A DNA stretch of 64,000 bases from Atriophallophorus winterbourni. Its lineage: Eukaryota; Platyhelminthes; Trematoda; Plagiorchiida; Microphallidae. The translations under genes were made by a program, and so were the position numbers. Positions 893 through 56,190 of this stretch are shown piece by piece. The notes beneath the pieces were generated by a model. The model was not told where the DNA came from and ran no database searches. It saw only the letters and a program-made list of their open reading frames with translations. Positions within the stretch are counted from its first letter, which is position 1; each line of letters starts with the position of its first letter. The stretch covers positions 124,001-188,000 of the forward strand of contig JACCGJ010013258.1 in NCBI GenBank assembly GCA_013407085.1, given 5' to 3'.

Positions 893-1289
893 ATAAGCAA
901 TGTACTCGTCATGGGGTGTGTGCGATGGCTAGTCATATTACTGTTGAACTTTCAATCAAATAATTTAGTTGTTTTCCTAAGTATTTTCATGAACATGCAT
1001 TCCATTTTTCGTTAGCGTTTTCGCCCGCTTGATGATATGTTTAAAATAATACTACTGCCAGGAACTTGGGTGGACCCTAAACGTTCTTTTGGGTTGTTTG
1101 AGCTAGCACAAACTGCGCTCTAAGAATATCAGAGTTAGAACTTACTACCGAACCAAAGCATGACATGTTATCAACCAATGAAAGATTACCGACTTGAGCG
1201 TCCAAAGGATCCTTTTGTTCGTGTTCAGTCGTTTTCTTCGACGATTTTTTCAGTTTCCCTCATGTGCTCGAACGAAGCCAATTGAGTGC
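893..1289. other. No gene recognised
   Basis: AT-rich spacer between the SINE pair and the inverted duplication. No exon, repeat or RNA gene could be supported on either strand. Confidence 0.6.
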
Positions 1290-3100: not shown

Positions 3101-3159
3101 CACGCACCTGGCTGGAATTGTAACATATAATGATAATTAATATAGTGAACCTTTGTTCA

Positions 3160-3400
3160 CATCCCTCGAAATCACACAAAACTACCAATTTCTGGCTGTT
3201 TGCCGTCATCATGTGGATACAGTAATATTAGGTTGTACTCCAATTCCACATTAGTGGAATGTTATTTAGGAGCATGTGAGCAACACACCACTTCGGTCAT
3301 CCCTAAGGGCATAGAGATTTTGTCCACGAGGCACCATGTGGTTTAAGGATTAATCATCGTGGTTAGTTGTACGAACCCTATGCAAAAGTAGCATTCAATT
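3160..3400. repeat. Relic of the hammerhead satellite: forward piece plus inverted piece
   Basis: About 3,175-3,235 matches the ribozyme segment of the 48.8-50.6 kb satellite units (CTGTTTGCCGTCATCA, then CAGTAATATTAGG). About 3,270-3,400 matches the other half of the same unit in reverse orientation (ATGTGAGCAACACA, later CGAACCCTATGCA read backwards). The ribozyme core is damaged: CTGATGA reads ATGATGA on the minus strand. The forward-plus-inverted arrangement recurs at 53.7 kb and at the end of the intact array at 32.8 kb. Confidence 0.65.
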
Positions 3401-4560
3401 ATAATCATAGTAATTATTATAGGTTACAATAAGTGCATGATATTAATCAGCTGTGGCGCCATGGATTAAGAAACAACAACGGGGGTGCCATGTACATCCA
3501 TCACCATCAAAAATTTCATCTCAAACAATTTTAATTTACTTCAGAATATATTACTAATATATGATTACAGTAGCGTAAATTCGCATAAATTCATCGAAAT
3601 TTGACCGATAAGGAACGTAGCATCAATTCTGACTGAGTAGATAAATTTGGCAGATTTTTGATATTTTCGTATTCTACTGTAATGTCCCTTTCAAGCAGCT
3701 CCATTAATAATCTATTATATGGTACCATTAAGTACAATTTTATAATAATAAGGCCGTAAATGTAAAGTAAATAAATTTATAATCTTATAATTTACGTGAG
3801 GTGCTCCCAGAAATTGAAGTTTAGATTTTGAAGAGTATTTTTCTATAAATCGATTGTCCAAAAATAAAACGAGTTGGCACGAACTTATATATTTAGCGCA
3901 TTCGCCAAACCGCACATTTATAATATGTTTGGAAGGATATTGAAAGCTTTGTGACTCCAAAACGATGATGAGGCCAGATGCTCAGGCAAGGCTGAAAAAC
4001 CTTCTTTCCAAAATATCAGCATATAGTCTATTGAATTCGTGTGAAACATGACAACATACAGGGAACGTTAATCGACGGAGATCAACTCTCAAAAATTGAA
4101 AAGCTACCTATAAAAATGTATCACTTTTGGTTCTGACTCAGTTATCGACCAGTGAGATTGATACTTATAAGTTAATATATTTTAAATGACTATATACAGC
4201 AGTCATTTATTAATGTGGTTGAAAATTCCTCATGGAGGTGATTTTATTGCAAATTAACTTAGAATCATGGAACATTGAAAACATTTTCTGATACATTATA
4301 ATTTCTGTGGTGCATTCGGTCAAGACAATTTTAGAAAAGGGCCACAGAACAATATAACGGGAAATTTGACTAAACACATCAAAAATTCCTATAGGAGAGA
4401 TAATTGCAATACAACGATCAATAAAAACATCAGCAAGTCAATTAGTTGTTTGCAGGTCGGAAACATATATAGCCGACAATGTAGATCACCATATTACAGT
4501 ATTACAACCCCTAAACGATCAGGCAAATTTGTGAACAAAAATCCCGATAACGCTCGATGA
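3401..4560. other. No gene recognised
   Basis: AT-rich spacer inside the loop of the inverted duplication. Short open frames are present on both strands, but none has a family motif or convincing splice signals. Confidence 0.5.
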
Positions 4561-9955: not shown

Positions 9956-9984
9956 TAGTCACTACTCTGTAATAGAGGAGAATA

Positions 9985-10235
9985 TACGTATCTCAGAATG
10001 GAGATTTTGTTCGGATGGTGTTCACCGAGCTTGTGTAGTTGTTGGTGAACGTTTCGTCATCAGGCTAGATGACATCATCAGCAGAACTTCTTTCGAAGTG
10101 ATTTAAAATTAAGATTCATTGGTCCATAGCTTGTAGCCAATTGAAGGTGTTTGTTAATCGATGCTGTTGTTGAGTGTAATGCTTCGATAAATTCTCGCGC
10201 TCGTCGGTTGTTTACTTTTGCCAAAATCCTCGGGC
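9985..10235 (-). mobile_element. Penelope-like element, 5'-truncated copy in inverse orientation
   Basis: The minus strand reads AKVNNRRAREFIEALHSTT and LQLATSYGP, which is the same protein end as the + copy at 10,236-11,060 (AKENNRRAREFIKAWHSTT, LQLATTNGP). It is followed by the same 3' region with a hammerhead-like stretch. Only the last 75 or so codons plus the 3' part are present. It is joined head-to-head to the + copy at about 10,236. Such inverted partial copies are typical of Penelope-like insertions. Confidence 0.8.
10041..10087 (-). ncRNA. Hammerhead-like core in the inverse Penelope-like copy
   Basis: On the minus strand: CTGATGA, then a hairpin (TGTCATC with TGATGAC), then GAAAC and GTT. 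This is the order of a hammerhead core. A convincing stem I between the flanks was not found, so this is a candidate or decayed ribozyme. Penelope-like elements are known to carry hammerhead motifs. Confidence 0.5.
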
Positions 10236-10236
10236 A

Positions 10237-10866
10237 ACACATTGCAGCACGCCGCAACTGATAAGAAAAGAAGAAGAATACTTGTGCAAAGTGTTCCAGA
10301 GGAATGGATATCCAAGAAGCTGCGTACTACGCAACAAGTTCAACCGTAACCAGCAAAGAAACGATGATGAAAACAGAGTCAGACGCGCTCTTCCGTATGC
10401 GCAGAACATATAAGAAATCGCAGCTTGGGTACTTCGGCAATTTGGAATAGAGGTCGCGCACACACCCGTGTCAGTATTACGCAACCACCTCAACAATATG
10501 AAAGACAAAGTTGCGAGAGAAGAACAATCGAATATTGTCTACAAGATTACGTGCAGAGATTGCGAGAAGAAATACTTCGGACAAACCGCCTACAAGCTAA
10601 GCACAAGATTAAACGATCACCGGTTAGCTGTACGAAGGCACGACCCAAGCTCACTGATTTCAATACATGTTGATCAATTCGGACACAAATTCCATTGGGA
10701 CAACGCGAGGATTTTGGCCAAAGAAAACAACCGACGAGCGCGAGAATTCATCAAAGCGTGGCACTCAACAACAAAATCGATTAACCAGCACCTTCAATTG
10801 GCTACAACCAATGGACCAATGAAAACGCGATGGAAAAGATTGCAACACATAAATTCCACCAACTAA
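10237..10866 (+). pseudogene. Penelope-like element, C-terminal part with GIY-YIG endonuclease
   Basis: The frame ending at 10,866 encodes a GIY-YIG type nuclease domain: NIVYKITCRDCEKKYFGQT (GIY as IVY, YIG as YFG, with a Cys pair between them), then LSTRLNDHRLAVRR with the expected Arg, and RRAREFIKAWHS with the expected Glu. In Penelope-like elements this domain follows the reverse transcriptase and cuts target DNA. Upstream in the same frame, ALPYAQNI is followed by a TAA at 10,411-10,413 and then EIAAWVLRQFGIEVAH. The N-terminal blocks near 10,278 are in another frame. Most of the RT is missing, so the copy is 5'-truncated and broken, but the nuclease part itself is intact. Confidence 0.85.
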
Positions 10867-11060
10867 CGGGCGTGATGGCGAACGGACAGACGGACCTGAT
10901 GAAAACCAATGAATGCCAATTTCAAGTCACTTCGAATGAAGTTCTCCTGATGATGTCATCTAGGCTGATGACGAAACGTCCGCCAACAACTACACAAGCT
11001 CGCGAACATCATCTGAACAACAGTCACTATTGTTTCCGACACCCTGGATATATTATTCCA
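10867..11060 (+). ncRNA. 3' region of the Penelope-like element with hammerhead-like core
   Basis: The core CTGATGA near 10,947 is followed by a hairpin (GTCATC with GATGAC), then GAAAC and GTC at about 10,978. This is the same arrangement as in the inverse copy. Stem I pairing is not evident. Homology with the inverse copy runs through CTACACAAGCTC near 10,990. Confidence 0.5.
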
Positions 11061-13250: not shown

Positions 13251-13264
13251 GGTTCATATTGAGA

Positions 13265-13400
13265 GCATTCGGCTAATGTTTTGCTCTTATTTGAGCTCAT
13301 CAGCGGTGAAAACGTCTGCTTCGCTTGGGATTCGAAGCCCCGCACGTCATTATTCCAGTCCAAAGTCTTATCATCTGGGTCACTTTTAACCTTCTCATCG
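13265..13400 (-). mobile_element. Diverged SINE fragment with hammerhead remnant
   Basis: On the minus strand the B box region GGCTTCGAATCCC is followed by GCGAAG, then CTGATGAGCTCAAATAAGAG, which is identical to the other SINE copies through core and stem II. The next bases read CAAAAC instead of CGAAAC, and the stem I strand is changed, so the ribozyme is probably inactive. The A box region is barely recognisable. Confidence 0.7.
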
Positions 13401-14504
13401 AACAAACACCACGCATATACTAATCCCTATATAAGATGTTTAAACGCATATAAATGTGTTTGTGGACAGGCAATTGAGCAGGTTGCTTTTAACGCCCATA
13501 TCATGTTCTTGACATACACGAGCATTTAGTTCTCAATGCATCCACTCTATTTAACCATCCAAATCGTTATTGTACTGTCCCTATCTGATACGTGCACACT
13601 ACATGGGAAAGATTGTGGTATGTGTGATATGGAAAAGCATTGAAATTCGAAATTCTATTCATTATTATGGTTTGTCACGCAAACTACATGCGTTTAGGCT
13701 AAACTGATTGAGCAATTGTTTTTACCAGCTTTTCCGATCTGAGGTTTAAAAGGTCAACTTGTTTATGCGGGAGCTCAACAGATTCCAGCGAACAATCTTA
13801 CTATTTGAGAGCCTATTTCAGTAGATCAACACTCTCTTACCGAATACCCACAGGGTTGTAGCGATAATGCTTGAAGAAATCATATATGTATGTAGAAGAT
13901 AGAACGCCCGATCATATTCACTAAACGCTAATGTGATTTTAGCAACACAATGTGATAGAAAATTTTTCCCAGCGATCTCTAAGAATTTTGGATGCAACAA
14001 TAATTCAAAAAAGGGGTTAACTGATTACACCTTGATAAGGTGGTGAAGAATATATCCATGTGGATATGTTGCTTTAGCTTTTTGGATTTTTATAGATCGT
14101 AAATTCACAGCAGTCTTTACAAAGTGTTACAATCATGTTTACACAAAATAAGCACAGTCGAAACGGGGATAAACGATCATCGTTTTTATTGTTTCAAAAC
14201 TATTTACATTTGAGGTCACAATTTTCAGACAAATGCATTCACCAAATGAAGGAATTCAACACACGTACTATACAAATGGTTCGTGTCATCCGAATATAAT
14301 TAAGGTACCCTATGGTGCTGCTGAAGACTATCATTTTGTTGCATCCTGGTGAATTGCCCACTTTCTATTGTACTATAATTATATCTATAGAATATTACCC
14401 TATTTATAAAATTTAACATTATTGTTTTAGTATATTGGTTGACGTGTTTCACACGTTTAATACTGAATTATCTTAGATGCGAGACCATGGAACGTTTCAA
14501 GGAC

Positions 14505-29355: not shown

Positions 29356-30084
29356 CTTTAAAACAGAAATAAAATTTGAACGAACAACTTTTGTGTATTT
29401 TCATTGTAATTGATTACGAACGAATATCTATTGCTATGACATTGAATTATGAACATGATGCGATGAACAATTTAAAACACTGACTATATAAACTGATTAT
29501 ATTTATATATTCTCAATTCCACTCAAACGTAGTCACATTTGCAGATATCAGGCATGTTCCCAACCTGGCTAGGTTGGTAAAATAGACCAAATGTTTCGTG
29601 CTTTGTTTCAGTGACTTGTCACACCTGGAATGTTATTAAGCTAACAGTGATGCGCTGTGATGTTCGGTTGAAACATTACCTCTTTTCTCATATATGTGTC
29701 CAACCATTTCGGATAACTCATAGCAAAACACGGAAATTGATATGCAAATTGGCTATGCAGCTGTCATATTCTGGCGATTGAATGTTCGTATTTAGGGTGA
29801 ACGAACGTTGACTGTAAAGACAAAGATGATGGTATACAAAGCGTGCGTATTAAATGCTTTACTGTACGAAAGTATAACTTTGTCCACCCATGCAAGACAC
29901 GAACGAAAATCGTATGCTTTTTATCCACATAGCAACTTTCGTATTTTGAACATAACGAAAATTGACCATGCTTTTGACAGCTGATCTACAAAGCATTTTT
30001 ACCTGGTTACAAACATGACGCTTGCTGTGACTAGGTCCTGTTTACGGATTGGAAAATTATAGTATTTCTAATGATGAACACTAT

Positions 30085-30335
30085 GGTGAGTTGCAATCGG
30101 GAAGTCGAACATTGAGCACACCACACTTGCGGTACAAGGAGGTTTGCAAAAGAGATATGAAAGCTGTTGGCATTGACCCCACGAGTTGAGAAGACGTTGC
30201 TCTTGACCGCTCACAATGGAGCATTGTGTAGAGCGTCGTCTGTAATCTAAGGATCAATATATAGAGCTATTGGCTGCTGAACGCAAATCATGCCGCCGGC
30301 GTGCAACTGTCGCGATAAAACCGAGTTCGAACAAT
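30085..30335 (+). pseudogene. RTE-like LINE, 3'-terminal coding fragment
   Basis: The + strand reads ELQSGSRTLSTPHLRYKEVC followed by KRDMKAVGIDPTS, a stop, then DVALDRSQWS, and later CRRRATVA-type residues in another frame. It matches the end of the RTE-like LINE at 58.4 kb (GRPHLRYKDVCERDMKSLD). It is a 5'-truncated insertion in an intron, antisense to the host gene. Confidence 0.75.
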
Positions 30336-31392
30336 CGTTACAAGCGCTGTGGGAAAGATTGTTCCTCCCAAATCAAAATAATTTAATTAATTTAATAAGA
30401 TATAGAACATGAGAACTCATGCAACTGCGATGTTGTATCCGTGATCAACATCGACCGAAGAATGAAAACAACAATAGTTTTACGACCGAAAATGTTCGAT
30501 GTTTAGAGCGCAAATTTATTAGTTTCCCTGTTTCGAATATCACCCTTGGTAAGACGAAATTGTTTGCCTAAACGAAACGTTATTCTAAATTAGGTTGACC
30601 GATTGCTTCCATTTTACAATTCCATGAAGATACTTTTCAAATGTGGTTTTAATCAAGCAGAGGAATGAAGTGATTATAACATTGAACTTTCAAAATATCT
30701 CGGAAACCACATTACATTAAGCTCATTTTATGAGAAGCCGTACGTTCCGGATATAATCTTGAAAGTTCAACATTTAAACTAATTCCCGAGTTTTACCAAA
30801 TTGAATCATGTAAAGCAGACTTCAGCGATAATAGTCGGATATCGATGGTTTGAGACCTACCGTGATTACACATTTCGGTTACAGAAAACACAGATCCCTG
30901 GGTGTGAAATTGGCAACATATACAGAAGCAAAACTAACCTCGACATTATAGCGCTTCGTTTACTATTTGTAATCATATTGTGGAAAACTGAAGTGCATTT
31001 GAAACATTCACCAACATATGTCAAATGAGACTTTAATAATGAGTTAATGTTGATGATGTTAATTAGACTTTAATGACAGTTTGTACTAAACCTGTTCGCA
31101 CGAAGTTGACTGGCGAATCAGTTCGAAGGGGAAACTGATACAGTCATGATGAACACAGTGTTATGTTAACGGCATTTGCATACGCTTAACCAATTAGGAT
31201 TCTCTTGTTTATGTGATTTGGCGGTAAACGTGTTTAGTGTTAGAAAACGTTGACCAGAAGTTCACTTGTTGCGTTCTGTGTTTGAGTTAAAAGAATTATT
31301 AACCTATGGTTACCAGCTATTAACTTATAATCAAACGTATCACCAAATGGCATAACTTTAAAAAAGATGAATTATTCTGCAAACGTGAAAAC

Positions 31393-31405
31393 GATATTGT
31401 TGGCT
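31393..31405. repeat. Left 13-bp direct repeat flanking the ribozyme array
   Basis: GATATTGTTGGCT, identical to 32,897-32,909. It lies immediately before the first satellite unit, so the two copies fit a target-site duplication. Confidence 0.75.
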
Positions 31406-31442
31406 CAAAATATACATTTACATGCTTTTCCGTCACAAAACA

Positions 31443-31484
31443 CCCCACGACCGGGATTGTGCTGTTTGCACTCATCAGGTAGGT
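31443..31484 (-). ncRNA. Hammerhead, unit 1, core damaged
   Basis: CTGATGA and stem II are intact on the minus strand, but GAAA reads AATC. Predicted inactive. Confidence 0.7.
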
Positions 31485-31676
31485 ACAGTAAGATCAGGAT
31501 CCGCATGCGCTTGAAACAGTGGAGAAATGGTAAACAAGGAGCGCTTGAGTGCCACTGTTGGATAAGGCTGGTACGACCAACCTGTTCAAAGCATGTGTCC
31601 AAACACATGTTAAATGGGGTTAAACCCATAACCATGAAACAAAATATACATTTGCATGCTTTTCCATCACAAAGCA

Positions 31677-31718
31677 CCCCACGACCGGTTTCGTGCTGTT
31701 TGCACTCATCAGGTAGGT
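31677..31718 (-). ncRNA. Hammerhead, unit 2, intact
   Basis: On -: stem I 5' strand ending CCTAC, CTGATGA (31,706-31,712), GTGC-AAACA-GCAC, GAAA, CCGG, triplet GTC, then GTGGGG as the stem I 3' strand. Stem I pairs over five to six positions including one G-U. Stem III is minimal, as in other animal type I hammerheads. Confidence 0.8.
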
Positions 31719-31910
31719 ACAGTAAGATCAGGATCCGCATGCGCTTTAAACAGTGGAGGAATGGTAAACAAGGAGCAATTGTGTGCCACTGTTGGATAAA
31801 GCTGGTACGACCAACCTGTTCAAAGCCTGTGTTCGAACACATGTTAAATGAGGTTAAACCCATAACCATGAAACAAAATATACATTTGCATGCTTTTCCG
31901 TCACAAAACA

Positions 31911-31952
31911 CCCCACGACAGGTTTCGTGCTGTTTGCACTCATCAGGTATGG
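31911..31952 (-). ncRNA. Hammerhead, unit 3, core intact
   Basis: Core, stem II and GTC triplet are as in unit 2. Stem III reads CCTG instead of CCGG, and stem I has one mismatch (CCATAC against GTGGGG). Confidence 0.75.
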
Positions 31953-32144
31953 ACAGTAAGATCAGGATCCACATGCGCTTGAAACAGTGGAGAAATGGTA
32001 AACAAGGAGCGCTTTTGTGCCACTGTTGGATAAATCTGGTACGACCAACCTGTTCAAAGCATGTGTCCAAACACATGTTAAATGGAGTTAAACCCATAAC
32101 CATGAAACAAAATATACATTTGCATGCTTTTCCGTCACAAAACA

Positions 32145-32186
32145 CCCCATGACCGGTTTCGTGTTGTTTGCACTCATCAGGTAGGG
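32145..32186 (-). ncRNA. Hammerhead, unit 4, weakened
   Basis: The core CTGATGA and GAAA are kept. Stem II has lost one pair (GTGC with ACAC), and the first base after GTC is A, which breaks the inner stem I pair. Confidence 0.7.
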
Positions 32187-32378
32187 ACAGTCAGATCAGG
32201 ATCCGCATGCGCTTGAAACAGTGGAGGAATGGTAAACAAGGAGCGCTTGTGTGCCACTGTTGGATAAGGCTGGTACGACCAACCTGTTCGAAGCATGTGT
32301 CCGAACACATTTCAAATGGGGTTAAACCCATAACCATGAAACAAAATATTAATTTGCATGCTTTTCCGTCACAAAGCA

Positions 32379-32420
32379 CCCCACGACCGGTTCCGTGCTG
32401 TTTGCACTCATCAGGTAGGG
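32379..32420 (-). ncRNA. Hammerhead, unit 5, core damaged
   Basis: GAAA reads GGAA. The rest is as in unit 2. Confidence 0.7.
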
Positions 32421-32612
32421 ACAGTAAGATAAGGAACCGCATGCGCTTGAAACAGTGGAGGAATGCTAAACAAGGAGCGCTTGTGTGCCACTGTTGGATA
32501 AGGCTGGTACGACCATCCTGTTCAAAGCATGTGTCCAAACAGATGTTAAATGGGGTTAAACCCATAATCATGAAACAAAATATACATTTATATGCTTTTC
32601 GGTCACAAAACA

Positions 32613-32654
32613 CCCCACGACCGGTTTCGTGCTGTTTGCACTCAGCAGGTAGGG
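32613..32654 (-). ncRNA. Hammerhead, unit 6, core damaged
   Basis: CTGATGA reads CTGCTGA. The rest is as in unit 2. Confidence 0.7.
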
Positions 32655-32710
32655 ACAGTAAGATCAGGATCCGCATGCGCTTGAAACAGTGGAGGAATGG
32701 TAAACAAGGA

Positions 32711-32890
32711 GGCTTGTGTGCCACTGTTGGATAAGGCTGGTATGACCAACCTGTTCAAAGCATGTGTTCAAACACATGTTATGTATATTTTGTTTCATGG
32801 TTAGGGGTTTAACCCCATTCAACATGTGTTTGGACACATGCTTTGAACAGGTTCGTCGTACCAGCTTTATCCAACAGTGGCACGCAAGCG
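32711..32890. repeat. Fold-back palindrome at the array end
   Basis: The left arm 32,711-32,780 and right arm 32,821-32,890 are near reverse complements (about 70 nt each) with a 40-nt loop. The right arm is the start of the inverted partial unit. Either strand would form a long hairpin. Confidence 0.85.
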
Positions 32891-32896
32891 CTCCGT

Positions 32897-32909
32897 GATA
32901 TTGTTGGCT
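32897..32909. repeat. Right 13-bp direct repeat flanking the ribozyme array
   Basis: GATATTGTTGGCT, identical to 31,393-31,405. Confidence 0.75.
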
Positions 32910-34247
32910 GTTTATTGTTTAGTTTTCGAGCGTTCCATACTTGTTGACATCTGACTCAACACCTATGTGAGAAACGTTTATCAAAACTGAAAATAACATT
33001 TTATTATAAGAAAAATGTTTGTGACAAACATTGTTTAGTGAGATAAAATAATGATTCCATTGCGCCAAGTGTAACCCAATTTAATTGCAGTACAAACGCA
33101 GAAGAGCAGTAATAAAATATCAGATAAACTACTTGAGAAGATGATATTATATATTTTTCTGGGGTCAAATTTGGGAGGGAGCTAATTATTCGCTAGAATA
33201 TAGTGCGAACTCCAGTAAATACAGCTGTGAGTTTTTGAATCAACGTGCGCCTGTCAAATAGTTTGACAAATCTATACTCTGTGGTTTACACGTTATTAAA
33301 GTAAAACATCGCAGCGAAATTCTTGATTAAAAGCTCGGGACTCAAGCCAGTGGTCTTGTGAAGAAATCCTTCGCGTTGAGGAACATATGAGTGTTCCAAC
33401 AATGGTTCGTTTCAACAATAAACTAATGGTTTATAGTTTAATTTGTTTTTATAATTGTGCACTTGTTCAGGGTAAACCTAAGCTTACTTTCTACAACTGT
33501 TATCATCACACGACTAGAAATCTGTTACGAAGCCGTGAAGCCGGCAGCAAAAAGTAACAGTAAATTGTATATTATATTTTATGGTTCTCTCGTTCCCAAA
33601 CAACAACGAGCCAATAATGTGAATGCAAGCAAAACAAAACATGTCGGTCCCTATTATAATACTTTTTCTATATTCAACACACTGTGTAGTGTTTGTCAAT
33701 ATTATCGTTGGGTTGCATGTCGCACAACGCAAACAAACGGATACAAAATTCTGAATACGTGCCTATTGTGATTGCAAATGTTAATGTCTGTTATCCTAAT
33801 CGAACGGCTGCCATTAAACACTAATTATCTCTACAGGTCACCAGCTACGCATTTATCCACCAATTTATGTAGATCCTACTTTGTGTTTCAGAGTGGATGT
33901 ACATTAATATTATAAATATTACATTATTGTCGAACGTCATCATATTGAATGATTTACTTTAATCAATAAATAAACCGAATAGGATTTACTGTATCAATTT
34001 TCCAACGAATACTTATGAAATTGCCTAACTTATTAGCCCCTCATTAGTTTCTCAATAATCGGTCTCCAGTATTTCCTAATTTAAATCATGATTTAAACTT
34101 GAACAAACACATCTAGTAACGTACAAATTACACCTGGACGCAATTTACCAGCAAGCTTTATATGTAACACTGGCAACACATTGAGCAACCCAGTTTCATT
34201 GTGCCTGATACAACATTCCACAGAATTAACGAAATGTATAAACTTAC
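32910..34247. other. Intronic spacer, no gene recognised
   Basis: The intron between exons 3 and 4 continues. The open frames near 33.5-33.8 kb on both strands have no motif. Confidence 0.45.
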
Positions 34248-34336
34248 TGCATCCATAGTTTCCGATATCACTTTTCCGTTCAATTGAAAATAGGGTGTTT
34301 TCTCGTTGGTGTACGAATGCGTTACCATCGCGAAAG
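34248..34336 (-). CDS. Exon 3 of the unidentified minus-strand gene
   Basis: 89 nt between acceptor AAAATTTACCAG and perfect donor GTAAGT. Two bases complete the split codon from exon 2, then FAMVTHSYTNEKTPYFQLNG and KVISETMDA, ending on a codon boundary as exon 4 needs. Confidence 0.65.
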
Positions 34337-37310
34337 CTGGTAAATTTTGTAAATGAATTAACACAAACTATCTATGAAACTCGAAGCAATACAACAGCTG
34401 GAATTTAAGGGATGTGATTAATTTTCACGGATGTAAAATTGACTGTGGCAAAACAAAGAAGAATGATCTGAAAAAGAACCCTATATTTCGAAAGAATAGT
34501 TTAGTTTGATAAATTATGTGAAGACTCATCTTCTATGAACGTTTGCCAAACTAACTTTATGAAGCACAGTATATCCTCACAATTCTACGTATTAGTGATT
34601 CACATACTCGAGACGCAATTATTGTTTTGTAATTGAAAATGATATGATCGCGTCGTTTAGTAATTTCCATGGAAATGAAATATGATTGCAATCAACAAGA
34701 TCAGTATTGTTGGAAACATTGCACCTCTGACACGCAAACCTCGTCCATCCAGAACAACGAACGTGAATAATTCACGCAGTCCACCAACTTTCATTAGTCT
34801 AACACTAGCAAAATATTGAAATATTAGGGTTATCAAAACGCGTTACCAATCACTATGTCGATGAGCTTGCGTAACCAGCACCTAACTAACGACCGATTTA
34901 TACTGAGAAGCTTGTGCACAATAGAATGTGTTATTTGTATAACTTACGGTATTGAACAATCTTACGATTGAGATATACATTCATGGTCAACATCGACCGA
35001 AGGAGGCCAACAACAAGAAGCCGTATTGGTTTATATGAAATCTACTAGCGTTAACGAAGATACAATTGCCAACCAAATTTTACAAATGTATTGTTTCAAT
35101 AAATGCAATTCTAATAAAGGATTTCTAGATTCAAGCCCATTATTTGCTTTCACCACGGAAAAAGGCTATGAATAAATATGTCAAACGAATAAGTTATATC
35201 ATATATATGGCTCACGAAAATTGTTCGTTTATAACTACTAAATTACACATTCGCTTTAAATATTGTCATGCATGTAGAGTCAATCACATGTTCAGGTAGA
35301 CGATTTCACAAATATAAAACGGACAGAAATACGTGGCGCCGGCTATGAATATTCGTACATGGGATGTTGGAGCGAAAGTGTACCATAAAGTGTTCCGTTT
35401 TTGCTACACCCTAGAAATTAGTGTCTTCGTATATACAACACCCAGATGTCCTAATCTTTCGTCGTAGGTAACATCTCAAATACCTATCGATAACTTAGTG
35501 GCTATGTGATAAATTCATTTATCTATGAGGGAACTAATTATTTAAGGCCATAAGCTCAAGCTTGAACGGCATTAAACAACGTTGGATGATTGCACACGAT
35601 CATCTATCCTGAGAAAGTTGCTAGCAAAGCTTTCAAATGGCACTGCATCGGAAAATTTGTAAAATCAATATGATGCATATTATGATAAAAAGGAAGTGCT
35701 CCCACTTCATTTATGTTGTTAACACTAACATATCAATGCATTGCACGTACTCAATTCCGGACTTTCCAATGTTCGTATATCTGCTGCAGATCGAGTAAAA
35801 ATTAGTTATTTTAAACCGGTATAATAATATATTCAAATTTGAAGAACAACTATGGTAAACTAAAATATGGGACGATATGTCACCAAGTTTTTAAACATTT
35901 AAAACATAATTCTTCGGATGAGTTTCATGCCTAGGAAACATGTAGCGATTATTGCGTTTGAGGGACCCGTAAATGAAATTCTGAAATTTGACACACAAAA
36001 CATCACTTTACATTTGGTTGGACAAAATGCTGGGGTAATAACGCGACATTTAACTTAATTTATATTAAAAAAGCATTTTATTGTTGTTTCAGCGTTATTA
36101 TCAATCTATTCGTATTTCACATGTTTAGCATTTTATGAAGTGGCGTTATTTCTGAAACACCTTAGAAAATTCAGCATGTACTGGATTAATTTAATATTCA
36201 TTTGGGTGGTTGATGTAACATTTTTATGTTCTTCTACGTTTACAGCGCTTGTAAACTAAGTACCTTACTGTACGCCAGTGAAACCTGGTCAATACAAGCA
36301 AGAGAGGCATGAACAATAAATGCATTATCAAATCACAATATCGGCAATAATTCTGGGCCGTACGGAATAACACTTCTCATATTTGAAGATTGTGTCAATA
36401 TTTATACCATCCACTCTCACATTTATATAAGAAGAAAACTATCAGATGACGTGAGTAGTACAGATTGGAAACGTGGAAAAATTAATCAGATGATTCTAAT
36501 TATTCACCTGTTACTCTGTTAACAGTGACTTTCAAATTATTTGACTTTTTGACGATCTAGGTATCATCTGCAGAAGAATCAATTGATTTCGAGAAAACTA
36601 CGTGGATTTAGACTGAATTATTCCTGTTGGTATAATTCACTGATGATCTAAAATGATTGCAACAATCGCTAGATAAATTCAAGCTGTACACTATATGCCA
36701 CCTAGATTAGTTCAAATAATTTGATGGCGCGAAATATAGATTAATATTGCAGAAGCTTGTATGGCTCAATATCTATCGAGAGTTGTTAACTTAGCTGAAT
36801 GGCTATTAAACATATCACACTATACAGATACGTTTTTAGGTGCGTTATGAAAACATATTGCTGCAACTAGCAAAATTCCCAAATTGTTTAAAACTTGCTT
36901 CAATCATCTTGCTGGTTCATGTTATTAAATTATCCGAATTCTCTTGATGTTACATTTCGTTATTGGCGTAAGACCTGATGATATGGCGTTGCATCCGTAG
37001 GCCAGAAAACTGCCAGCTATCACCATTAGATTATTTTGAAAAATAAGCTCCCAGTTTACTTCAACAAATTCAAGCTGATGATAATTAGATTCCAGTACAT
37101 TTCGCAAAACATATATCAGCTCACATGTACCTTAAAATCGCAGCGATTGGAAGGATTTGAGTATATGGAGATGAAGCAGTTTACAAACTGTACTTCAATA
37201 TAACTATCATTTCCATGTCAAAAAGGGGCTTAAAGTTTCTTGGCATTATAAATACATACTAGGCAGCTGTCATGAACGTAGCTCTGCTGTCACGGTCTAC
37301 GTGGTTCAAA
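34337..37310. other. Intronic spacer, no gene recognised
   Basis: Part of the intron between exons 2 and 3. AT-rich, with no motif-bearing frame and no clear repeat. Confidence 0.45.
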
Positions 37311-38405
<1,095 letters not shown>

Positions 38406-39288
38406 GATAATGTATATTGTTGGATACACCAATTCATGCAATGCATGAACATTTGAATGTATTACTAATGCACGAAATATATTTTCGCTAAAAAAACTAG
38501 TTCTCAGCATACAGATGAAACCTCAGGAAAACAGATAGCTCTCCTGATTCTGTTCCACTTTATATGACAACGAATCGGTAAGGACCTGATCCTACTTTAC
38601 AAGATATTACATTCCCAAAACAGAGAAACCGGGAATTTGAACCGAAATTAGACCTTTTTGTATTAAATAATTTGATTCCAGAATAATTATATACTGAATA
38701 AACATTCTTGATTTACTATGACATATTATCAAAACAATCTTTCCGGTAGCTTTCCACACAATTAAAGAAATTTACATTTTTCCAGCTATGAAGAATGTAT
38801 CGCAATGTTTGACAATCTGACTCATTAAAGATATGCTATTGCATAGAATTTACAATCATGCAAATGAATTACAATGTGCTCAACAGTAACTAGCGTAATT
38901 AGAACAAAAGAAGAATCTGTGCAACCCCGCAACATTAATATAAGCATACAGCTTGACGTTATACAAAATGCTCCAACTAGACTCAAGCTGATTGAGCAAA
39001 AGGCTATTTAGCGAAAGAGAACAGATCACTCTTGCCCATCTTGGTACAAAACAATATTGAATGAAACCTAGTCAGGAGTTCTCAGTCGTATACTTGATTT
39101 CTCACAGAACATTATGAAAATTTAATTGGAATAAGTACATTCCCTCTCACATGCATCGCGTTCCATCATGCTGACCGGTTTTAGTTACCCGGGAAAATAA
39201 TCATAATAAAATGTTCTTCATTTCGAGTGATCTAACGATAGTGGATTATGAAAATTCGCAAAAGCTATTGATTCGAAATGTAACTCAC
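38406..39288. other. Intronic spacer, no gene recognised
   Basis: Sequence between the purine tract and exon 2, with no supported feature. Confidence 0.45.
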
Positions 39289-43085: not shown

Positions 43086-43430
43086 ATCATTCCTGTTGGG
43101 CGATCAAAACATATTTTGCGTGCAACTTCAGGACTCGTCGGCTAAAAAAGCTAATAAAATAGGCCAGTCTGGTAGCAGATTCATAAACGCTTATTAGCGA
43201 TCGGTTGAACGATGGAGTGTGGCCAATGTCGTGAGCCGTAGGACTATAATGACGAAGGTCGGGTTTCGAGTCACACCTTATCGTAGGAATTGCATTGGGA
43301 ATTAGCCCAAAAAAGTACGAAAGTCGAGCCTAGTGATTTCGTTATGAACAGTCGTGATAAAATTTGTTATTATTTTAATAGTTTTGACACGAATGGGTTA
43401 ACGTTTTCATATAAGTATGCACTGTAAAAC
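43086..43430 (+). mobile_element. Old full-length SINE copy, ribozyme destroyed
   Basis: Matches copy 2 (534-892) over its whole length: GTTGGGCGATC at the start, GGCCAGTCTGG, CGATCGGTTGAACG, the B box region GGTTTCGAGTC and the tail around GACACGAATGGG. At the ribozyme site CTGATGAG has become GGGAATTAG. It confirms the 5' end of the SINE unit. Confidence 0.7.
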
Positions 43431-43579
43431 TATTTAGGCAATCCTCGCAAATCCTGAATTCTTGTGGGTGTGGTGTTTAGCATATCAACCTGGAACTGCC
43501 TACTGACACTACTGCTTGGTTTTAAGCTCAATTTACAAGAGTGCAGGCTCATGTCAATAAACAGTTTGGGTGCATAAAG

Positions 43580-43725
43580 CTTACCAAATAGTGGCTTGCA
43601 TGATCAACTGGTTTACAATTATTCCGCTGCTTCAAGCACATGAGGCTTATGATACTACTGTCCCTACCGTATAAGTTCATACAGCGCGAAATCTGTCGTG
43701 ATGTGTGCGCGATGCAGATGCGTGC
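43580..43725 (+). repeat. Hammerhead-satellite relic in opposite orientation
   Basis: Reads as the ribozyme strand on +: GCTTCAAGCACATGAGG, then ACTGTCCCTACC, a changed core CGTATAA, a GTTC...GCGC stem, GAAA, CTGTC and GTGATG. It therefore lies in the opposite orientation to the 31 kb array. Confidence 0.6.
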
Positions 43726-46700
43726 AAATGAACTTATATGAACTTATATGAGAGAGCACACACCTTATTTAGGTCCGTGTGTCACTTTCTCAATCACTCT
43801 TCAAACAAGGGTCTTCGAGGGAGTCTTTGGAGTTAACATCATTTTGTGTATGACCAAAATACTAAATCTAATTCGATTTACAAACATTCAATTTTTTTAT
43901 ATTCGTGGCGTGGTTGAGTCTTGAACCAAAACAACTTAATCGTGATCAACTTTATCATGTAACTTTTCATTCGGAGTTGAACACCAATTTACATGAGGGA
44001 TGAAAATGTGGATAAAAATTAATTGTCGACCCTTTAAATATTTGTGCTACGGATTTCATTCGCAGAAACCTGTGACTGTTTGTAAGCAGATTATATAACA
44101 TAAGGTTGAATAATTTATCGAGCATTTCTCTGAAAGAATACTCGCGAAGTTCCCGTGATTGTGAATTGAATTTGATTTGAATTTGATTTTCGCTTCTTTC
44201 TCCATAAACTAGACAGGATTAATTTGGTTTTTGCACTATATATAATGTATACCCAAAAGTTCCAATTTGTTTTTGTGGCTTTGTTCATTTGGATATAATT
44301 TTTTTAACCAGAATAAATAAAATCCTATTTTCAAAAAGAGCATCGAATTAATGAACTTTCTCTTATGCATATTTAAATGTTTTGTATAATTTGTTGGAGC
44401 TCCGCAAGCAGTTGAATCATATATTCGTAATACGAGTTTCTGTTCTGAAGCTCCACGAATTTTCTGTCAGCTCGGTTTGCGGCAAACCATTTTCTCATGA
44501 GTTTTCTACATTTGTTTTGAAAGAGTTCACCTAAAGCACAATTTCTAGCCGTGTGGTCGCATTTGGTGCTCCGGCGATATGTATAGCGGGCGAATTTGGG
44601 ATGTACACGGATTGTCATATTGAAATAAGTGAACTCGAAATGATAGTTTTTAGTGACACATGATCAATCGAGGCTAAATTGACAATGCTGCAGTATGCTA
44701 ATTCACTGTAAGCGTGAAGTATGATAAACGTTTGGTATCGCGGTTCCCTTAGTAACACAAAACATAAGTGCGACATGTTTTTTTTATTTTGAATCGCCAT
44801 TCTTATGTTAGGAAATATATGGGTTGTGAATTCCGTATGAAATATTACAATAGAGTTTATTCCGTCTTAAAATCAACCTTCAAAGATAATGCCTTTGTGG
44901 CGATAAATATATCAGATATGTCGTGTTCTGTGTTGTTTAACCTGCATTGTGATTGTCAACCAACGGTATACTTCGACCAAAAAGTGTATTCAAAATTCTT
45001 TCAAACAGTTGGAAAAGATTTCTAATTTGAATCTGATCCGTTGGGGGTAAGTGCAGCTAATTGCAGAAAATGTGCACAGTATTTTGAATTACATGAGAAT
45101 TGTTTTCATGAAATAGCTATTAGAATCAGAGATGCAAATGTTGGAAATATGTTTTACAGAATAGGACTAGTTTTAATTTCGTAATAAATTGATCCAGCAG
45201 ATGAAGGACAAGTTTGCACAGGTTTGATTTTTCAGCAAATGATTCAACATTTCTGTTTTTCCCAACTACAAGCCAAACTAGGTCAATCATGTTGAGAAAA
45301 TAACTTTGTTATATAATTTCTTTTACAGTAATTATTTCGTTTGCAAAGTAAGGAAATGATATACTGTGTATCATTACCAAAGGTTTAGAATAATTCTCAT
45401 AAATTCAATGAAAACCAGCTCGGATGGTGTAAATCTAAACTCATCCAAACCTTGCTTGTCTTATTTTCGGATACAAGATAAACTAATTCACATCACAGAT
45501 AATAATAAACTTTTCCGGATGAATCTCTGCGTCACTGTATAAATATCCGGCGTAGTAAACATTTCATTATACGACTAGCACCAACGGGCAAATAATCGTT
45601 TAAAAATGGACATCTTTATTTCATAATAAAATAAATTGCACTTATGTTCAGACCTCTTTATTGAATTAGATCAAATTCGTATCACTTTTAGAAAAACACA
45701 TGTAATGTATCTAGATAAGGCAAATTCCATGAGAGATCAAATAATAAATACACAACTCATATGGGAAAAATTGTTTGCGTGTGAGAAATGTCATATAAAT
45801 GTACAATGTTCAAATTTTGTGACATTTTTCAATATGTTTCTAAATTGATGGTCTGCTTAGTGACCTCACCGGATTGTATTTGGTATTCACCTGCAAAAAA
45901 ATATATATTATATTGTCATTCGTTTGAGTTATAAATTTCAATTGTGAAAAATTAATAAAACTTCGATGGATAATTAAATTGATCAATAATTATGGACATG
46001 TATTGTGGTTATTACCCAAAAAATAATAAAATAATAATCTAAATAAAAAAGGTGTTCTACAAAGAAATATGAATAAACTGAAGTGAAATAAAACGCAAGT
46101 CATTGCTTATTTGTATAAAACACATTAATAGATTCTGCATTTTCTTTTGTTGAAATCTATTTCACAATTTGAGAAGTGCCTCTCTTAGTTGGAAAACACT
46201 GGGGTGCCATACATTGCAAAGTCTTTCGTTTTCAATAGATAAAACCGCTCACCATATTTGAAACCAACTAATGGTGGAAAAGGTTGATTGTTCAATTAAA
46301 TCAAAAAGTGTTGTTGAATTTATTCGGTCGATGTCGACCATGCATGTGCAACAGAATCGCATAATGATTTCATGTTACAAAGCTATTCAAATGAATAAAC
46401 ATTCCGATTTATGAGGAACAAACTCTCCCACAGCGATATGCATTACACGGTCTCTATGCGTTAGTTGCTCGCATGCGGCGTTACCTTCGTTTAGCAATGA
46501 AGAGCTGTTTCTGCTCCACACCAGCTTGCAAACAACGCTTTAAACAATGCCTCTAATGTGCGTGCTAACTAGCAAATTCCTCATAACTAGCGGGGTCAAC
46601 GCTAATTTTATTGTCAACACTTAGATCTATCATGTAAAAAATGTTGAAGTAATGCTCGGTTTGGTTAATTTGAAATTTAGCATTAGATATCTGTTATTTG

Positions 46701-48124: not shown

Positions 48125-48830
48125 ATGATTGCACATTGTTTGCTTACGAATCCGCATGGACGATGTTTACATTCATGATGACGGTAGGATGTTTCTGTTC
48201 GCCGATGATTTCAAACATGGAGTCGACTTAGAAGCATTGTTTTTTACTGCATGCAAGCTGAATGCATTGCACAAACGGGCTACTCAAAATGATCTTCTGC
48301 TGATGTTAACATTTTGTATGATTATACAGGTTTGCTACAAACAGAAATGGTTGCATTTTACTAGCTTGATGGAAAATGCCAAGCTTGTACCACTGAAAAA
48401 AACAATTTATGTATTTAATTTGTGGTAGATATGAAAACGCTTCTAAATTCGCTGCGTCTTCTAGGCATGTTACGGCAAAGTCCTGAACGGTTTTTAGAGA
48501 AGCATTCACTAGTAAAATGAGCAAAACGTTCACCTCGTTTTGATTTGATCTGTTCACGCATGAAAACAATGGCCTCAAATATATGTTGTTATTTACTGTT
48601 TATGTAAACTACGGTTTAATTTTGGAGATGGCTTTTCAAATATAGTATGACTTGAGGGTATTAGACAATTGGGTCTAACAAATTTCACAGAGAAGTAAGT
48701 GGGATAATTTTATCCTAACGAGCAATATGTTTCTAAAAACGTTTTTAACACCAGGTAATTTATATCGTATACTCTATGTATTTAGACGTAATAGAAAATG
48801 CATTAGTGATGTGTTCCTTACATTCTCAGA
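48125..48830 (+). pseudogene. CR1-like LINE fragment (RT palm and thumb)
   Basis: The + strand reads DDGRMFLFADDFKHGVDLE (RT catalytic FADD intact) and then, in other frames, LHKRATQNDLLL and LRLLGMLRQSPERFLE (thumb). From about 48,440 the sequence is repeated, diverged, at 50,715 downstream of the satellite. Confidence 0.65.
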
Positions 48831-48834
48831 AATT

Positions 48835-50634
48835 GAACTGCCCTACTGGTAACCGGCTGTTTGCCGTCATCAGGAGGAGAGAGTAAGAGCAGAACAGTGG
48901 ATAAATGTTGAACAAATGTTAACTTGAATCACACTGTTGCATAGGGTTCGTACAACGAACAACGGTGTTCAAACACGAATCACTTATTGATTCGTGCTAA
49001 AGCACTTATTGCCCCAATGAATGAGCAAAGTGACGTGTTGCTCAACATCTCCCGAAAATACACTGCACTGCCGGTTTTTGGCTCTTACCGTCATCAGGTG
49101 GAGAAATTGAATTAGGTTCATTCAGGATTGAAGCAGTGGATGAATCGTAAACAATCGTATACTTTTATGCCTCTGTTGCATAAGGATCCTGCAACGAACG
49201 ACGATGTTTAAACACAGAATCACATAGTAATTTGTGCTGGAGTGCTCCATGCGCTAAAGAATGACCAATGTGGGGTGTTGCTCAACATCCCAGGAAAATA
49301 TACTGAACTGCCGGTTTTTAGCTCCTTCCCGTCATCAGGTGGAGAAATTGAATTAGGGTTATTAAGAATTGAAGCAGTGGATAAATAGTAAACAATCGGA
49401 TACGTTATTGCCTCTGTTGCATATGGTTCATACAACGAACGACGATGTTTAAACACTGAATCACATAGTGATTTGTGCTGAACCACTCAATGCGCTAAAG
49501 GATGAACAAAGTAAGGTATGGCTCAACGTCCAACAAAAATACACTGCACTGCCGGTTTTTGGCTCCTTACCATCATCAGGTGGAGACAGTAAGATTAGGC
49601 TCAGTGAGTGTTGAAACAGTAGATAAATAGTACAAAAGTGTTTACTTCAATGCCAGTGTTGTATAGGTTCCGTAAAACGAACGACGATTTTCGAACACAG
49701 AATCACATGGTGATTTGTGTTCAAGCACTCTTTGCGCTTATGGATGACGAAAGTGACGTGTTGCTCACATCACCTTAAATTACATTTAACAACCGGTTTC
49801 TGGATGTTTGCAGTAAGATTAGGTTCACTGAGCCTTGAAACAGTGAATAAATGGTAAACGAGTGAATACTTTAATGCCACTGTTGCATAGCGTTCGTACA
49901 AGGAATGACGATGTTCAAACACAGAACCACATATTGTGTTGTGCTCAAGCACTCAAGACGCAAATGGATGACCAAATTGATGTGTTGCTCACATTTCCCG
50001 AAAATACAATGTACTTCCGCTTTTTGGCTGTTTACCGTCATCAGGTGAAGAGAATCAGGCTAGGTTCAAAGAGCCTTAAAACAGTTGATAAATCATAAAC
50101 AAGTTTATACTTTAGTGCCACTATCGCACGTAGTTCCAACAACGAAAGACGATGTTGAAGCACAGAATCACATAGTGCTTTGTTCTCATGCACCCAAGGC
50201 GCTTATTTATGACCAAAACGATGAGTTGCTCACATCACCCAAAATTACATTGCACTACCGGTTTCTGGCTGTTTACTGTCGTCAGGTGGAGAGAATTAGA
50301 TAAGGTTAATTGAGCCTCGAAACATGGTTAACATGTGTTTTGTTGAATGCTTCTATTTCATAGGGTTCGCACAACGAGAGAAGATGTTCGAACACATTAT
50401 CTCGAAATGTTTTGTGCGTTAGCATACAAGGCGCTTATGGAAGACTAAAAAGATGTGTTGCTCGCATCACACCAAATTACACTTAACTACCGGTTACTGG
50501 GTGTTTGCAGTCATAAGGTGAATACAGTAAGATTAGGTTCAGTAAGCCTTGAAACAGAGGATAAATGGTAAACAAGTGTACACTGAAATGCCACTGTTGT
50601 ATATCGTTCGTACAACGAACGACGATGTTTAACC

Positions 50635-50637
<3 letters not shown>
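48835..50637 (-). repeat. Old tandem satellite related to the ribozyme array
   Basis: About eight degenerate units spaced 224-241 bp (reference point CCGTCATCAGG at 48,864, 49,088, 49,329, 49,570, 50,035, 50,276 and 50,508; one unit has lost it). About half the unit is homologous to the 234-bp unit (CAGTAAGATTAGG, GAAACAGTGGATAAATGGTA, TGCCACTGTTGCATA); the other half differs. On - most units keep CTGATGA plus an AAACA-looped stem II, but GAAA has drifted and stem I pairs poorly. Confidence 0.8.
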
Positions 50638-53724: not shown

Positions 53725-53960
53725 GTAACACAATTGATGTGTTGCTCATATACCCCCATAATACTCTGAAGTACCGGTCTCTCGCTCTTTGCCGTCATGA
53801 GGATGAGACAGTAATATTAGTTTTTGTGCAACTTAATACAGAATTTCGGGGAATGTGAGCAACACATTAGATTGGTCATAAATAAACGCCATGTGTACTC
53901 GACCACAAATCACCATGTGATTCTGTGATTGAATATCGGGTTTGTTTTTACGAAATCTAT
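53725..53960. repeat. Hammerhead-satellite relic: forward piece plus inverted piece
   Basis: Forward piece 53,735-53,822 (GTGTTGCTCATATACCC to GACAGTAATATTAG), then inverted piece 53,855-53,940 (ATGTGAGCAACACATTAG onwards). Same architecture as at 3.2 kb. The core on - reads CTCATGA. Confidence 0.6.
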
Positions 53961-56190
53961 GTAACCTATAATTCAATTCGGCTATGTGCACGATGTTACC
54001 TAAGTGAACCAAAATGGAGATGTTTTCTATAAACCTAACTCTAAACCAGATTCTATTCCCTGCCACCGAAAGATATACGGTACTGGTGCCGTTAAAGTTC
54101 TCCCTGTTAGAAAGAAGGCCACATGACCAGCTATTGTGGACAAAATACAGCTAGTCCGCATTGGACAATGCGTGTGTGACTTATACACTCAATATATTAG
54201 AAAACGAAACAATGCAAGCAATTGTGTTATCTAAGGTTTCTTGATCAATATGTGTACACAATTGTTTTCTCAATTAATTAGAACCTACAGCTGTCCGATT
54301 CTCCTCGAAAGGAAGATCTTAATCCGCGTTAAAATGATAAAAACAGTTCATTTCATATTATATCGACACATTATTTTGCCTTCTGTTTCAGCTATGAATA
54401 ACAAATTTTCTTAAATGAAAGTATATTGTGCTCGTAAAACGAACATTCGTTACCGCATTCTTTGATGAGACAAAACAATACAAAACTCAGATCTGTTTTT
54501 CAAAGAAATATTATTCGATGTTAATGCGAAAGAGGTTTGCCATTTTCTAATATTTGAAGGAGCTCTTCTTATATAGATGAAAATGCACAGCTTTTATGTC
54601 TTCAAATCTGCATCCTCGAAATCGTTGGCTGCTTGGCATTCCCAAGTACAAGTACAATTAAGATTTTGGCACATTGATAGGGAAACTTTCATATTGACAA
54701 GCCGAAACAACGTTTATATTCTAAACAATATCCAATGATTCATTATAATGATAGCTGTTCCCGTGGATTCCATTTTCATGATAATATGAATCAAATAGTA
54801 ACGTTTTCACCGTAAACGAATGGACTCTATGTGAACAATAGTTCTTGTTTCGGGATGGTTAATTCATATTATTTATTCGACATAATATTTTTCATATATG
54901 TATTAGAAATGGGCGTTTAATTGACAAATGTGCAACGAAGATCACTGGTACGAATGGTTTGATGACATTCGTTAACGGTGAACGCATTTAGAACTCATCG
55001 CTTAGTAGGTGAATATAATTGTTATCTGATGAAGAAACACGATAATGACTTCAGATGTTGGGTAATGGTTGATTAAATGTGAGGTATCACACTGTCGTCA
55101 AACTGCATAGAAATGCGACGGTTTATATGTAACTCTAGCTCAAAAATATTTTTTTACTTTCCAAATAAGCTGAAATAGACCATCACTATTTTTTTAATTT
55201 AATCGACTGCAATGACCTTTCCTATTTAACTTGTTTGCATTTGCTTACATATTTTTCATTTTTTTATTTTTATTTTTCTAAGATAGATTTGCCTGGTCTT
55301 GTAGAATTAAGATTTATAATAGTAAATTTGAAAGCAACGTCGGAGGTTAATCATTAACGAGCATGTATATCTGCTCTCAGTTAGAGCTAAAGTTGATCTC
55401 GAAATGTCATCTTCACAAACAATTGTTGCACATGGCGTATTTCTTAAAACAACAATGCCTAAATGCCGTTTATATCACCAAATCGATTAATAGCATTTGC
55501 CTTATAACACATTTTCGAACAATGCATCATTCTTCAGACATTTTACATAATTGGATATTTGAAAATATGTATGATAAAGATGGGATAAAGATGTACATTT
55601 TCTCCTGTGAATTGATTTATGGCCAAAAATGAAAACACATTGCTTAACATAGGTTTTGTAGTCTGTTTCATGTTAAACAATCTCACACGGCCAAAATGTT
55701 TACTTCAATTGAGTCGCTATTGAGACACAGTCGAATTCAATGTGTAAGCCCTTAATTTATGTGAGCTTCATGAAAAAAAACATCAAGTATTTCAGCGGCT
55801 GAATTACAGTAGTCCATTTATTGAGTGGATAACGTGGATAATTTGAAAGCTCAGGCTTTTGATTCGCATTTTATTTGTCGTACCAGACATATCTCACCGT
55901 GAATTACATGTTTAAAATTTCTTAACTCATAATCCTTTTTTAAAACGATTTTTTTTATTTTGTTTTTTTACAAATAATTGCTCAATACGTACTCCGTTTT
56001 TGCGATGCGGTGCTAAATCCTGTGAAATAAACAAAAATGCTATTATTTTACAATGTGTTTCAAACGGTAATTTTGAAATGTTAGCTCTTTGATATCCACA
56101 ATTGTTTCGTATTTTAATCTCTTTTTGACTGTCATAATTAACTGGCATCGAATTATTCCCTGTAAACTTGCATTTAATGGCTTCATCATT
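53961..56190. other. No gene recognised
   Basis: Spacer. A 27-nt block at 55,993-56,019 on - (DLAPHRKNG) lies between a good acceptor and a GTACGT donor and could be a microexon. It is not called as a gene. Confidence 0.4.

What the first reader, a model, noticed from the sequence alone, without database searches (positions are those of the whole stretch)
31393..32909. A 234-bp satellite with a hammerhead ribozyme in every unit, inserted as one block with 13-bp target duplications
Seen: six units with an exact 234-bp period; on the minus strand each carries CTGATGA, a stem II with AAACA loop, GAAAC, a minimal stem III and GTC, with stem I pairing; two units keep a full core, a third is weakened and three have single-site core damage. 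The array ends in an inverted partial unit, and GATATTGTTGGCT occurs directly on both sides. Known: animal retrozymes are small tandem elements with type I hammerheads that yield circular RNAs. Inferred: this is such an element, and its circles or multimers were reverse transcribed and inserted together. A satellite that moves as a multimer with its own ribozyme and leaves a target duplication is unusual to see this clearly.
Basis: partly seen in the sequence, partly recalled or inferred. Interest (0 to 1): 0.9.

Follow-up and report, generated by a model that had tools for sequence, protein, structure and literature searches.

The report
Ribozyme satellite inserted as one block
Six copies (one incomplete) of a small DNA repeat, each with a predicted self-cutting RNA motif or its damaged remnant, entered this genome as one piece at a site that is still empty on a closely related contig, and were likely copied from RNA by the enzyme of a Penelope-type jumping gene, which bears on the open question of how such satellites spread.

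Summary
Window 31406-32781 is 5.9 units of 234 bp with type I hammerhead motifs on the minus strand, then an inverted partial unit (32782-32896), between two copies of GATATTGTTGGCT. A collinear contig about 98% identical (C2921) has that 13-mer once and no array, so the block went in as one piece. The family is large: 335 of 465 near-complete units aligned from 37 loci keep the ribozyme core. Other insertions share the anatomy: direct repeats of 8-13 bp at 6 of 11 insertions (0 of 110 mismatched flank pairs exceed 6), a recurrent 3' end 43 nt past the predicted cut (13 of 21 arrays within unit positions 229-242), and head-to-head 5' inversions (8 distinct). Penelope-like elements (PLEs) of this genome also end at fixed internal sites, 41-42 or 77-81 nt past a hammerhead-like motif that I read by eye and Rfam does not find. 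I read the array as a metazoan retrozyme likely moved by a PLE. One block mixes unit subfamilies, which favours a multi-unit RNA template over one RNA circle; a molecular-clock argument for the window block is inconclusive. Ribozyme activity, RNA circles and PLE action are untested.

The parts
31393..31405 (.). Target duplication, copy 1 (GATATTGTTGGCT)
   Evidence: Exact 13-bp direct repeat; present once in the empty site, L065
31406..31639 (-). Unit A1; 31406 is the sense 3' end of the array; ribozyme core damaged (GAAA reads AATC)
   Evidence: no Rfam match
31640..31873 (-). Unit A2; intact hammerhead core 31677-31718, predicted cut between 31683 and 31682
   Evidence: Only array unit passing the strict descriptor; Rfam 26.8 bits
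31874..32107 (-). Unit A3; hammerhead 31911-31952, core letters kept, stems I and III weakened
32108..32341 (-). Unit A4; hammerhead 32145-32186, core letters kept, stems I and II weakened
32342..32575 (-). Unit A5; hammerhead 32379-32420 with one core change (GAAA reads GGAA)
32576..32781 (-). Unit A6, 5'-truncated; hammerhead 32613-32654 with one core change (CTGATGA reads CTGCTGA)
32782..32896 (+). Inverted partial unit, head to head with A6
32897..32909 (.). Target duplication, copy 2 (GATATTGTTGGCT)
48805..50637 (-). Array B: degenerate related array (period 241); sense 3' end about 37-39 nt past the position of the ribozyme cut
3144..3403 (-). Short B-type insertion with a head-to-head inverted 5' piece
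53732..53965 (-). Short B-type insertion with a head-to-head inverted 5' piece
9971..11021 (+). Penelope-like remnant: inverted piece 9971-10232 head to head with a sense piece from 10234; GIY-YIG-type frame 10414-10866; hammerhead-like motif 10947-10980 (by eye, not found by Rfam); candidate target duplication AGTCACTA at 9957 and 11022

Best explanation
A block of 5.9 units of a 234-bp repeat with hammerhead motifs, plus an inverted partial unit, inserted here as one piece and duplicated 13 bp of target, and it was likely copied from a multi-unit RNA by the reverse transcriptase of a Penelope-like element in the same genome. Shown by the sequence: block insertion, target duplication, empty site, a recurrent 3' end 43 nt past the predicted ribozyme cut, recurring head-to-head 5' inversions. 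Inferred: the repeat is transcribed; its ribozymes cut some transcripts and leave others as multimers; a PLE protein would nick both target strands about 9-13 nt apart; one DNA end would prime copying at the fixed site and the other further inside, so that two cDNAs meet head to head. In family terms this is a metazoan non-LTR retrozyme.
For: Exact 13-bp repeat at both block edges, and one copy with no array on a collinear contig. Six of 11 insertions examined have exact direct repeats of 8-13 bp at their edges; 0 of 110 mismatched flank pairs exceed 6. Sense 3' ends fall at unit positions 229-242 in 13 of 21 arrays (P about 2e-11 against uniform, interval chosen after seeing the data). Head-to-head inversions in 10 loci, 8 distinct junctions; none tail to tail among those read. 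PLEs: 7449 first-look candidates, 150 scored, frames up to 924 aa. Of 12 PLE loci read, 5 (3 distinct) end at site 1 and 4 at site 2, 41-42 and 77-81 nt past a hammerhead-like motif; the window PLE is head-to-head inverted, sense end at site 1, inverted end at site 2. PMC3846280 (passages): rotifer PLEs with inverted pLTR, tail, 8-10-bp duplications, mostly head to head. PMC11167929 (main text): a PLE cuts both target strands, starts copying at two internal sites, and inserts RNA whether or not its ribozyme works. L037 mixes two subfamilies inside one duplication.
Against: No array unit reaches the Rfam gathering score; the best family units also fall short. The PLE hammerhead is my reading of letters: Rfam finds none, the strict descriptor missed it, and its stem I pairs only 1-2 bases next to the core, so the 42/43-nt match is weak; even if right, chance is about 5% by my estimate. 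The tails share no obvious sequence. Eight of 21 arrays end elsewhere. Five of 11 insertions lack a clear duplication, L027 and L028 among them, which end near the fixed site; three PLE copies checked show none. All window units share a rare variant (91C), which one circle would also explain. Broken ribozymes do not explain multimers: in L041 three of four hammerheads look intact. C2921 may be a duplicated segment rather than an allele.
Confidence: 0.62

Rival explanations
1. A single RNA circle was reverse transcribed round and round (the published circRNA model), by a PLE or another enzyme, and the tandem cDNA was inserted.
For: All units of the window block and its inverted piece share the rare 91C variant (7 own, 13 elsewhere); published life-cycle model (PMC7229834, Discussion; PMC7761336, passages). 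Within 500 bases of the site the two contigs differ by 35 of 993 (3.5%), about as much as units differ from their array consensus (3.6%), so unit differences could be younger than the insertion.
Against: L037 holds two subfamilies within one target duplication. With flank divergence of 1.75% over 3252 bases, or 3.5% split evenly between the two lineages, about 12-24 private changes are expected in the window block against 49 seen.
Confidence: 0.3
2. A LINE (non-LTR) enzyme moved it, the 5' inversions being twin priming.
For: Twin priming is described as giving inverted, truncated LINE-1 copies with duplications (abstract in a search listing); LINE-type reverse transcriptase remnants are in the window.
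Against: No poly(A) or simple-repeat 3' tail in the ends read; a fixed internal 3' end and head-to-head pieces as in PLEs of this genome. No LINE 3' end was compared, so this is not excluded.
Confidence: 0.25
3. An ordinary satellite expanded in place by unequal exchange, or entered as circular DNA.
For: Long arrays exist (L029, 30 units) and two copies of one insertion differ, about 6 against 7 units.
Against: Perfect duplication plus an empty site with one copy; recurrent 3' end; inverted 5' pieces. Later length change by exchange remains likely for long arrays.
Confidence: 0.05
4. The hammerhead motif no longer works in this family.
For: Sub-threshold Rfam scores; core positions only slightly more conserved than the rest, 0.978 against 0.968; unremarkable folding z-scores.
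Against: 335 of 465 units keep the core and 401 of 465 keep the palindromic stem III CCGG, a form known from hammerheads that act as dimers (recalled).
Confidence: 0.15

Closest known systems
Metazoan non-LTR retrozymes (PMC7229834; abstract, passages, Discussion)
   Same: Type I hammerhead in short tandem repeats (150-450 bp), G+C under 50%, no coding frame found, target duplication longer than 4 bp
   Different: Here an empty site, a recurrent 3' end past the ribozyme cut and head-to-head inversions are shown; RNA circles are not
Penelope-like elements (PMC3846280 passages; PMC11167929 main text)
   Same: Tandem copies, head-to-head inverted 5' piece, short target duplication, fixed internal 3' ends
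   Different: The array encodes no reverse transcriptase or endonuclease
Schistosoma Sm-alpha / W-elements with hammerheads (PMC8490949, passages and one section)
   Same: Repetitive, partly tandem, type I hammerhead, putatively mobile; one presumptive target duplication reported
Plant LTR retrozymes (PMC4918200, listing; PMC7761336, passages)
   Same: Non-autonomous, ribozyme-bearing, thought to use RNA circles
   Different: LTRs, type III hammerheads and 4-bp duplications there

Membership tests
Metazoan non-LTR retrozyme | Type I hammerhead in tandem repeats of 150-450 bp | tested here: met
   234-bp period; core intact in 335 of 465 units; Rfam type I matches, but below gathering
Metazoan non-LTR retrozyme | G+C below 50%, no coding capacity | tested here: met
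   45% G+C; no Pfam match above cut-off in 4 frames
Metazoan non-LTR retrozyme | Target duplication longer than 4 bp | tested here: met
   13 bp with empty site; 8-13 bp in 6 of 11 insertions
Metazoan non-LTR retrozyme | Expressed as self-cleaved linear and circular RNA | not testable with these tools
   No RNA data available
Penelope-like element | Encodes reverse transcriptase and GIY-YIG endonuclease | tested here: not met
   No such match in four array frames; at most a passenger
Penelope-type insertion (works like) | Head-to-head inverted 5' piece | tested here: met
   8 distinct junctions; 10 distinct insertions without one
Penelope-type insertion (works like) | 3' end at the same distance from a hammerhead cut as PLEs of this genome | tested here: inconclusive
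   43 nt against 41-42 nt, but the PLE motif is read by eye and not found by Rfam
SINE with tRNA head (Sm-alpha type) | tRNA gene-like part, or match to the Sm-alpha-like element in the window | tested here: not met
   No BLAST match to window 201-900; ARAGORN found no tRNA in the window, which does not exclude a degenerate promoter

The most novel reading that the evidence does not exclude
The ribozyme plus about 42 nt downstream is a docking module shared by Penelope-like elements and retrozymes: the satellite mimics it, parasitises the PLE enzyme, and spreads by having uncut multi-unit transcripts, not RNA circles, copied straight into staggered breaks.
Probability: 0.33. Interest if true: 0.85.

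Novelty: new member of a known kind. Interest (0 to 1): 0.64.

Why it matters
Which enzyme moves animal retrozymes is open: PMC7761336 says the repeats show no motif that helps deduce the partner, and PMC7229834 calls PLEs a strong candidate because both have type I hammerheads, tandem copies and co-occurrence (passages and Discussion). A recurrent 3' end, PLE-type inversions, target duplications and an empty site turn that into a testable claim in one genome. Mixed units inside one insertion also question the RNA circle as the only template.

Tried and rejected
Rejected: in-place growth as the origin of this block (empty site); miRNA matches as chance hits on the inverted-repeat hairpins; coding potential of the array frames (all below cut-off). 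Broken ribozymes as the cause of multimers: not supported, L041 keeps three of four. L045, a 40-bp insertion that could start exactly at the ribozyme cut: its duplication overlaps the element by GTG, so the 5' end lies anywhere in unit positions 192-195; not used as proof. Dropped rows: L047 (matched the end pattern, no retrozyme there); L022 (contig end) and L033 (second copy of L028) from the 3'-end count; L036 (5' flank N) from the 5' and duplication counts. L037's 3' end was moved from 6 to 234 by hand because its duplication aligns by chance. The 5 distinct insertions found were selected for ending at 234 and are not counted for that position. Apart from L028/L033, L046/L052, L048/L050 and the shared junction of L019/L026/L038, I did not check whether loci are haplotype pairs. 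Protein searches and a PDB search gave nothing. The organism is not identified.

Full report
What is there. The array lies at 31406-32781 (5.9 units, 234 bp) with its ribozyme on the minus strand, followed by an inverted partial unit at 32782-32896 and bounded by two exact copies of GATATTGTTGGCT. Rfam Hammerhead_1 matches 5 of 6 units at 23.5-28.5 bits, below the gathering score of 34. The best family units in five other loci score 32.9-33.3, so the family sits just under the curated threshold. By letters, A2 is intact, A3 and A4 keep the core with weaker stems, A1, A5 and A6 are damaged.

Empty site. A protein search showed that contig C2921 carries the window's Penelope-like frame at 100%. 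The first 6000 bases of C2921 align collinearly with window 29638-31405 and 32917-37137 at 97.5-98.1% identity and hold the 13-mer once, with no array. The join reads straight across one copy of the 13-mer. This shows one insertion of the whole block. C2921 may be the other haplotype or a duplicated segment.

Family. The genome (537 Mb, 15840 contigs) gave 547 matches after scoring 40 of 10068 first-look candidates. From 37 loci (L001 of the window plus 36 fetched) I aligned 546 units; 465 are near complete, of which 335 keep the ribozyme core and 401 the palindromic stem III.

Ends. Of 21 uncut arrays, 13 end at unit positions 229-242 and 7 at 232-236 (intervals chosen after seeing the data); position 234 is 43 nt past the predicted cut. 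Eight end elsewhere. Ends at 103-111 occur in three main arrays (L009, L017, L036) and two inverted pieces (L001, L013), a possible second start. In the older family B, three insertions of the window end at nearly the same unit place, 37-39 nt past the cut position.

Target duplications. For 11 insertions I compared 5' and 3' flanks in sense orientation, with boundaries set by hand. Six have exact repeats of 8-13 bp within 3 nt of both edges (L001 13, L041 13, L037 12, L045 10, L051 9, L049 8, the last extending to 11 with one mismatch); five (L046, L048, L027, L028, L013) have 2-6. Of 110 mismatched pairings none exceeds 6. Some edge bases could equally belong to the element.

Inversions. Ten loci have head-to-head joined pieces; three share one junction, leaving 8 distinct. 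In several of them one arm runs off the contig, so only the join is seen. Ten distinct insertions have a plain 5' end. I saw none tail to tail.

Which machine. PLEs are numerous (7449 first-look candidates, 150 scored, frames up to 924 aa, some in tandem at about 2531-bp spacing; [quoted passage not shown] Of 12 PLE loci read, 5 (3 distinct) end at site 1, 4 end at site 2, 3 run on into the next unit. Site 1 lies 41-42 nt and site 2 77-81 nt past the GTC of a motif CTGATGA...GAAACGTC. I take this motif for a minimal hammerhead, as reported for PLEs (PMC7761336, passages), but Rfam does not find it, the strict descriptor misses it, and next to the core its stem I pairs only one or two bases. 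The window PLE has a head-to-head inverted piece ending at site 2 and a sense end at site 1, with a candidate 8-bp duplication 6 nt off the inverted edge; three other PLE copies show no duplication. PMC3846280 (passages) describes inverted pLTRs, a tail, 8-10-bp duplications and mostly head-to-head joins for rotifer PLEs. PMC11167929 (main text) reports a PLE that cuts both target strands, starts copying at two internal sites (main start 111-118 into the ORF, ribozyme cut at 26, so 85-92 nt past it, nearer to site 2 here), and inserts RNA equally well with a dead ribozyme. The retrozyme insertions fit this anatomy. The 42/43-nt match alone is weak evidence.

Template. L037, with a clear duplication, contains units of two subfamilies. 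Its units have nearest external relatives at 0.9-2.1% and differ among themselves by 3.0-5.6%; the external set is far larger, so this comparison is biased, but the subfamily letters are not. For the window block, 49 of 1376 bases are private changes. Against 1.75% flank divergence this is an excess (expected 12-24), but within 500 bases of the site the contigs differ by 3.5%, and if all of that fell on one lineage no excess remains. All window units share a rare variant, so one ancestral master is likely. L041 is more uniform. A multi-unit transcript of an older array fits all three; a single circle does not fit L037 unless later exchange altered it.

Literature. Animal retrozymes as tandem repeats with target duplications, and PLEs as candidate partners, are published (PMC7229834; abstract, passages, Discussion). 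PMC7761336 (passages) states that no motif identifies the partner. Schistosome W-elements with working hammerheads and one presumptive duplication are known (PMC8490949; passages, one section). In the listings and passages of my searches I saw no report of a fixed 3' end or an empty site for an animal retrozyme; PMC6431247 holds 'empty site' and hammerhead terms but was not opened, and most subscription papers are not in that library.

Verdict. A confirmed example of a known kind, with new anatomical evidence on how the kind moves and an unproven but testable link to Penelope-like elements.

Noticed in passing
window 205-896 (+): Two tandem copies, 432 bp apart, of a second hammerhead element with a tRNA-like stretch (by eye); one ribozyme (313-357) passes the Rfam gathering score (37.4 bits) and both pass the strict descriptor. 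Resembles schistosome Sm-alpha by recall.
   Followed up: partly
window 13243-13790 and 43095-43730: Relics of the Sm-alpha-like element lie near relics of the 234-bp family at both places.
   Followed up: no
L028 (C1987) and L033 (C12762): The same insertion site with matching flanks carries about 6 units in one contig and 7 in the other, without a clear target duplication.
   Followed up: partly
L019, L026, L038: Three arrays share one inversion junction (unit 78 against 38), suggesting duplication of an already inverted array.
   Followed up: no
L065 against window 33650-34900: About 1250 bases without a single mismatch beside stretches that differ by 3-5%: a patchy pattern, perhaps gene conversion or an assembly effect.
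   Followed up: no
window 17120-17326: An old copy of the 234-bp family appears to have a 9-bp direct repeat TCAGCTTTT at its edges, read by eye.
   Followed up: no
L048:2628-2682 (+): Sub-threshold twister-P1 ribozyme match, 34.7 bits against 67.2.
   Followed up: no
window 37309-38411: Long AAT/AGA simple-repeat tract.
   Followed up: no
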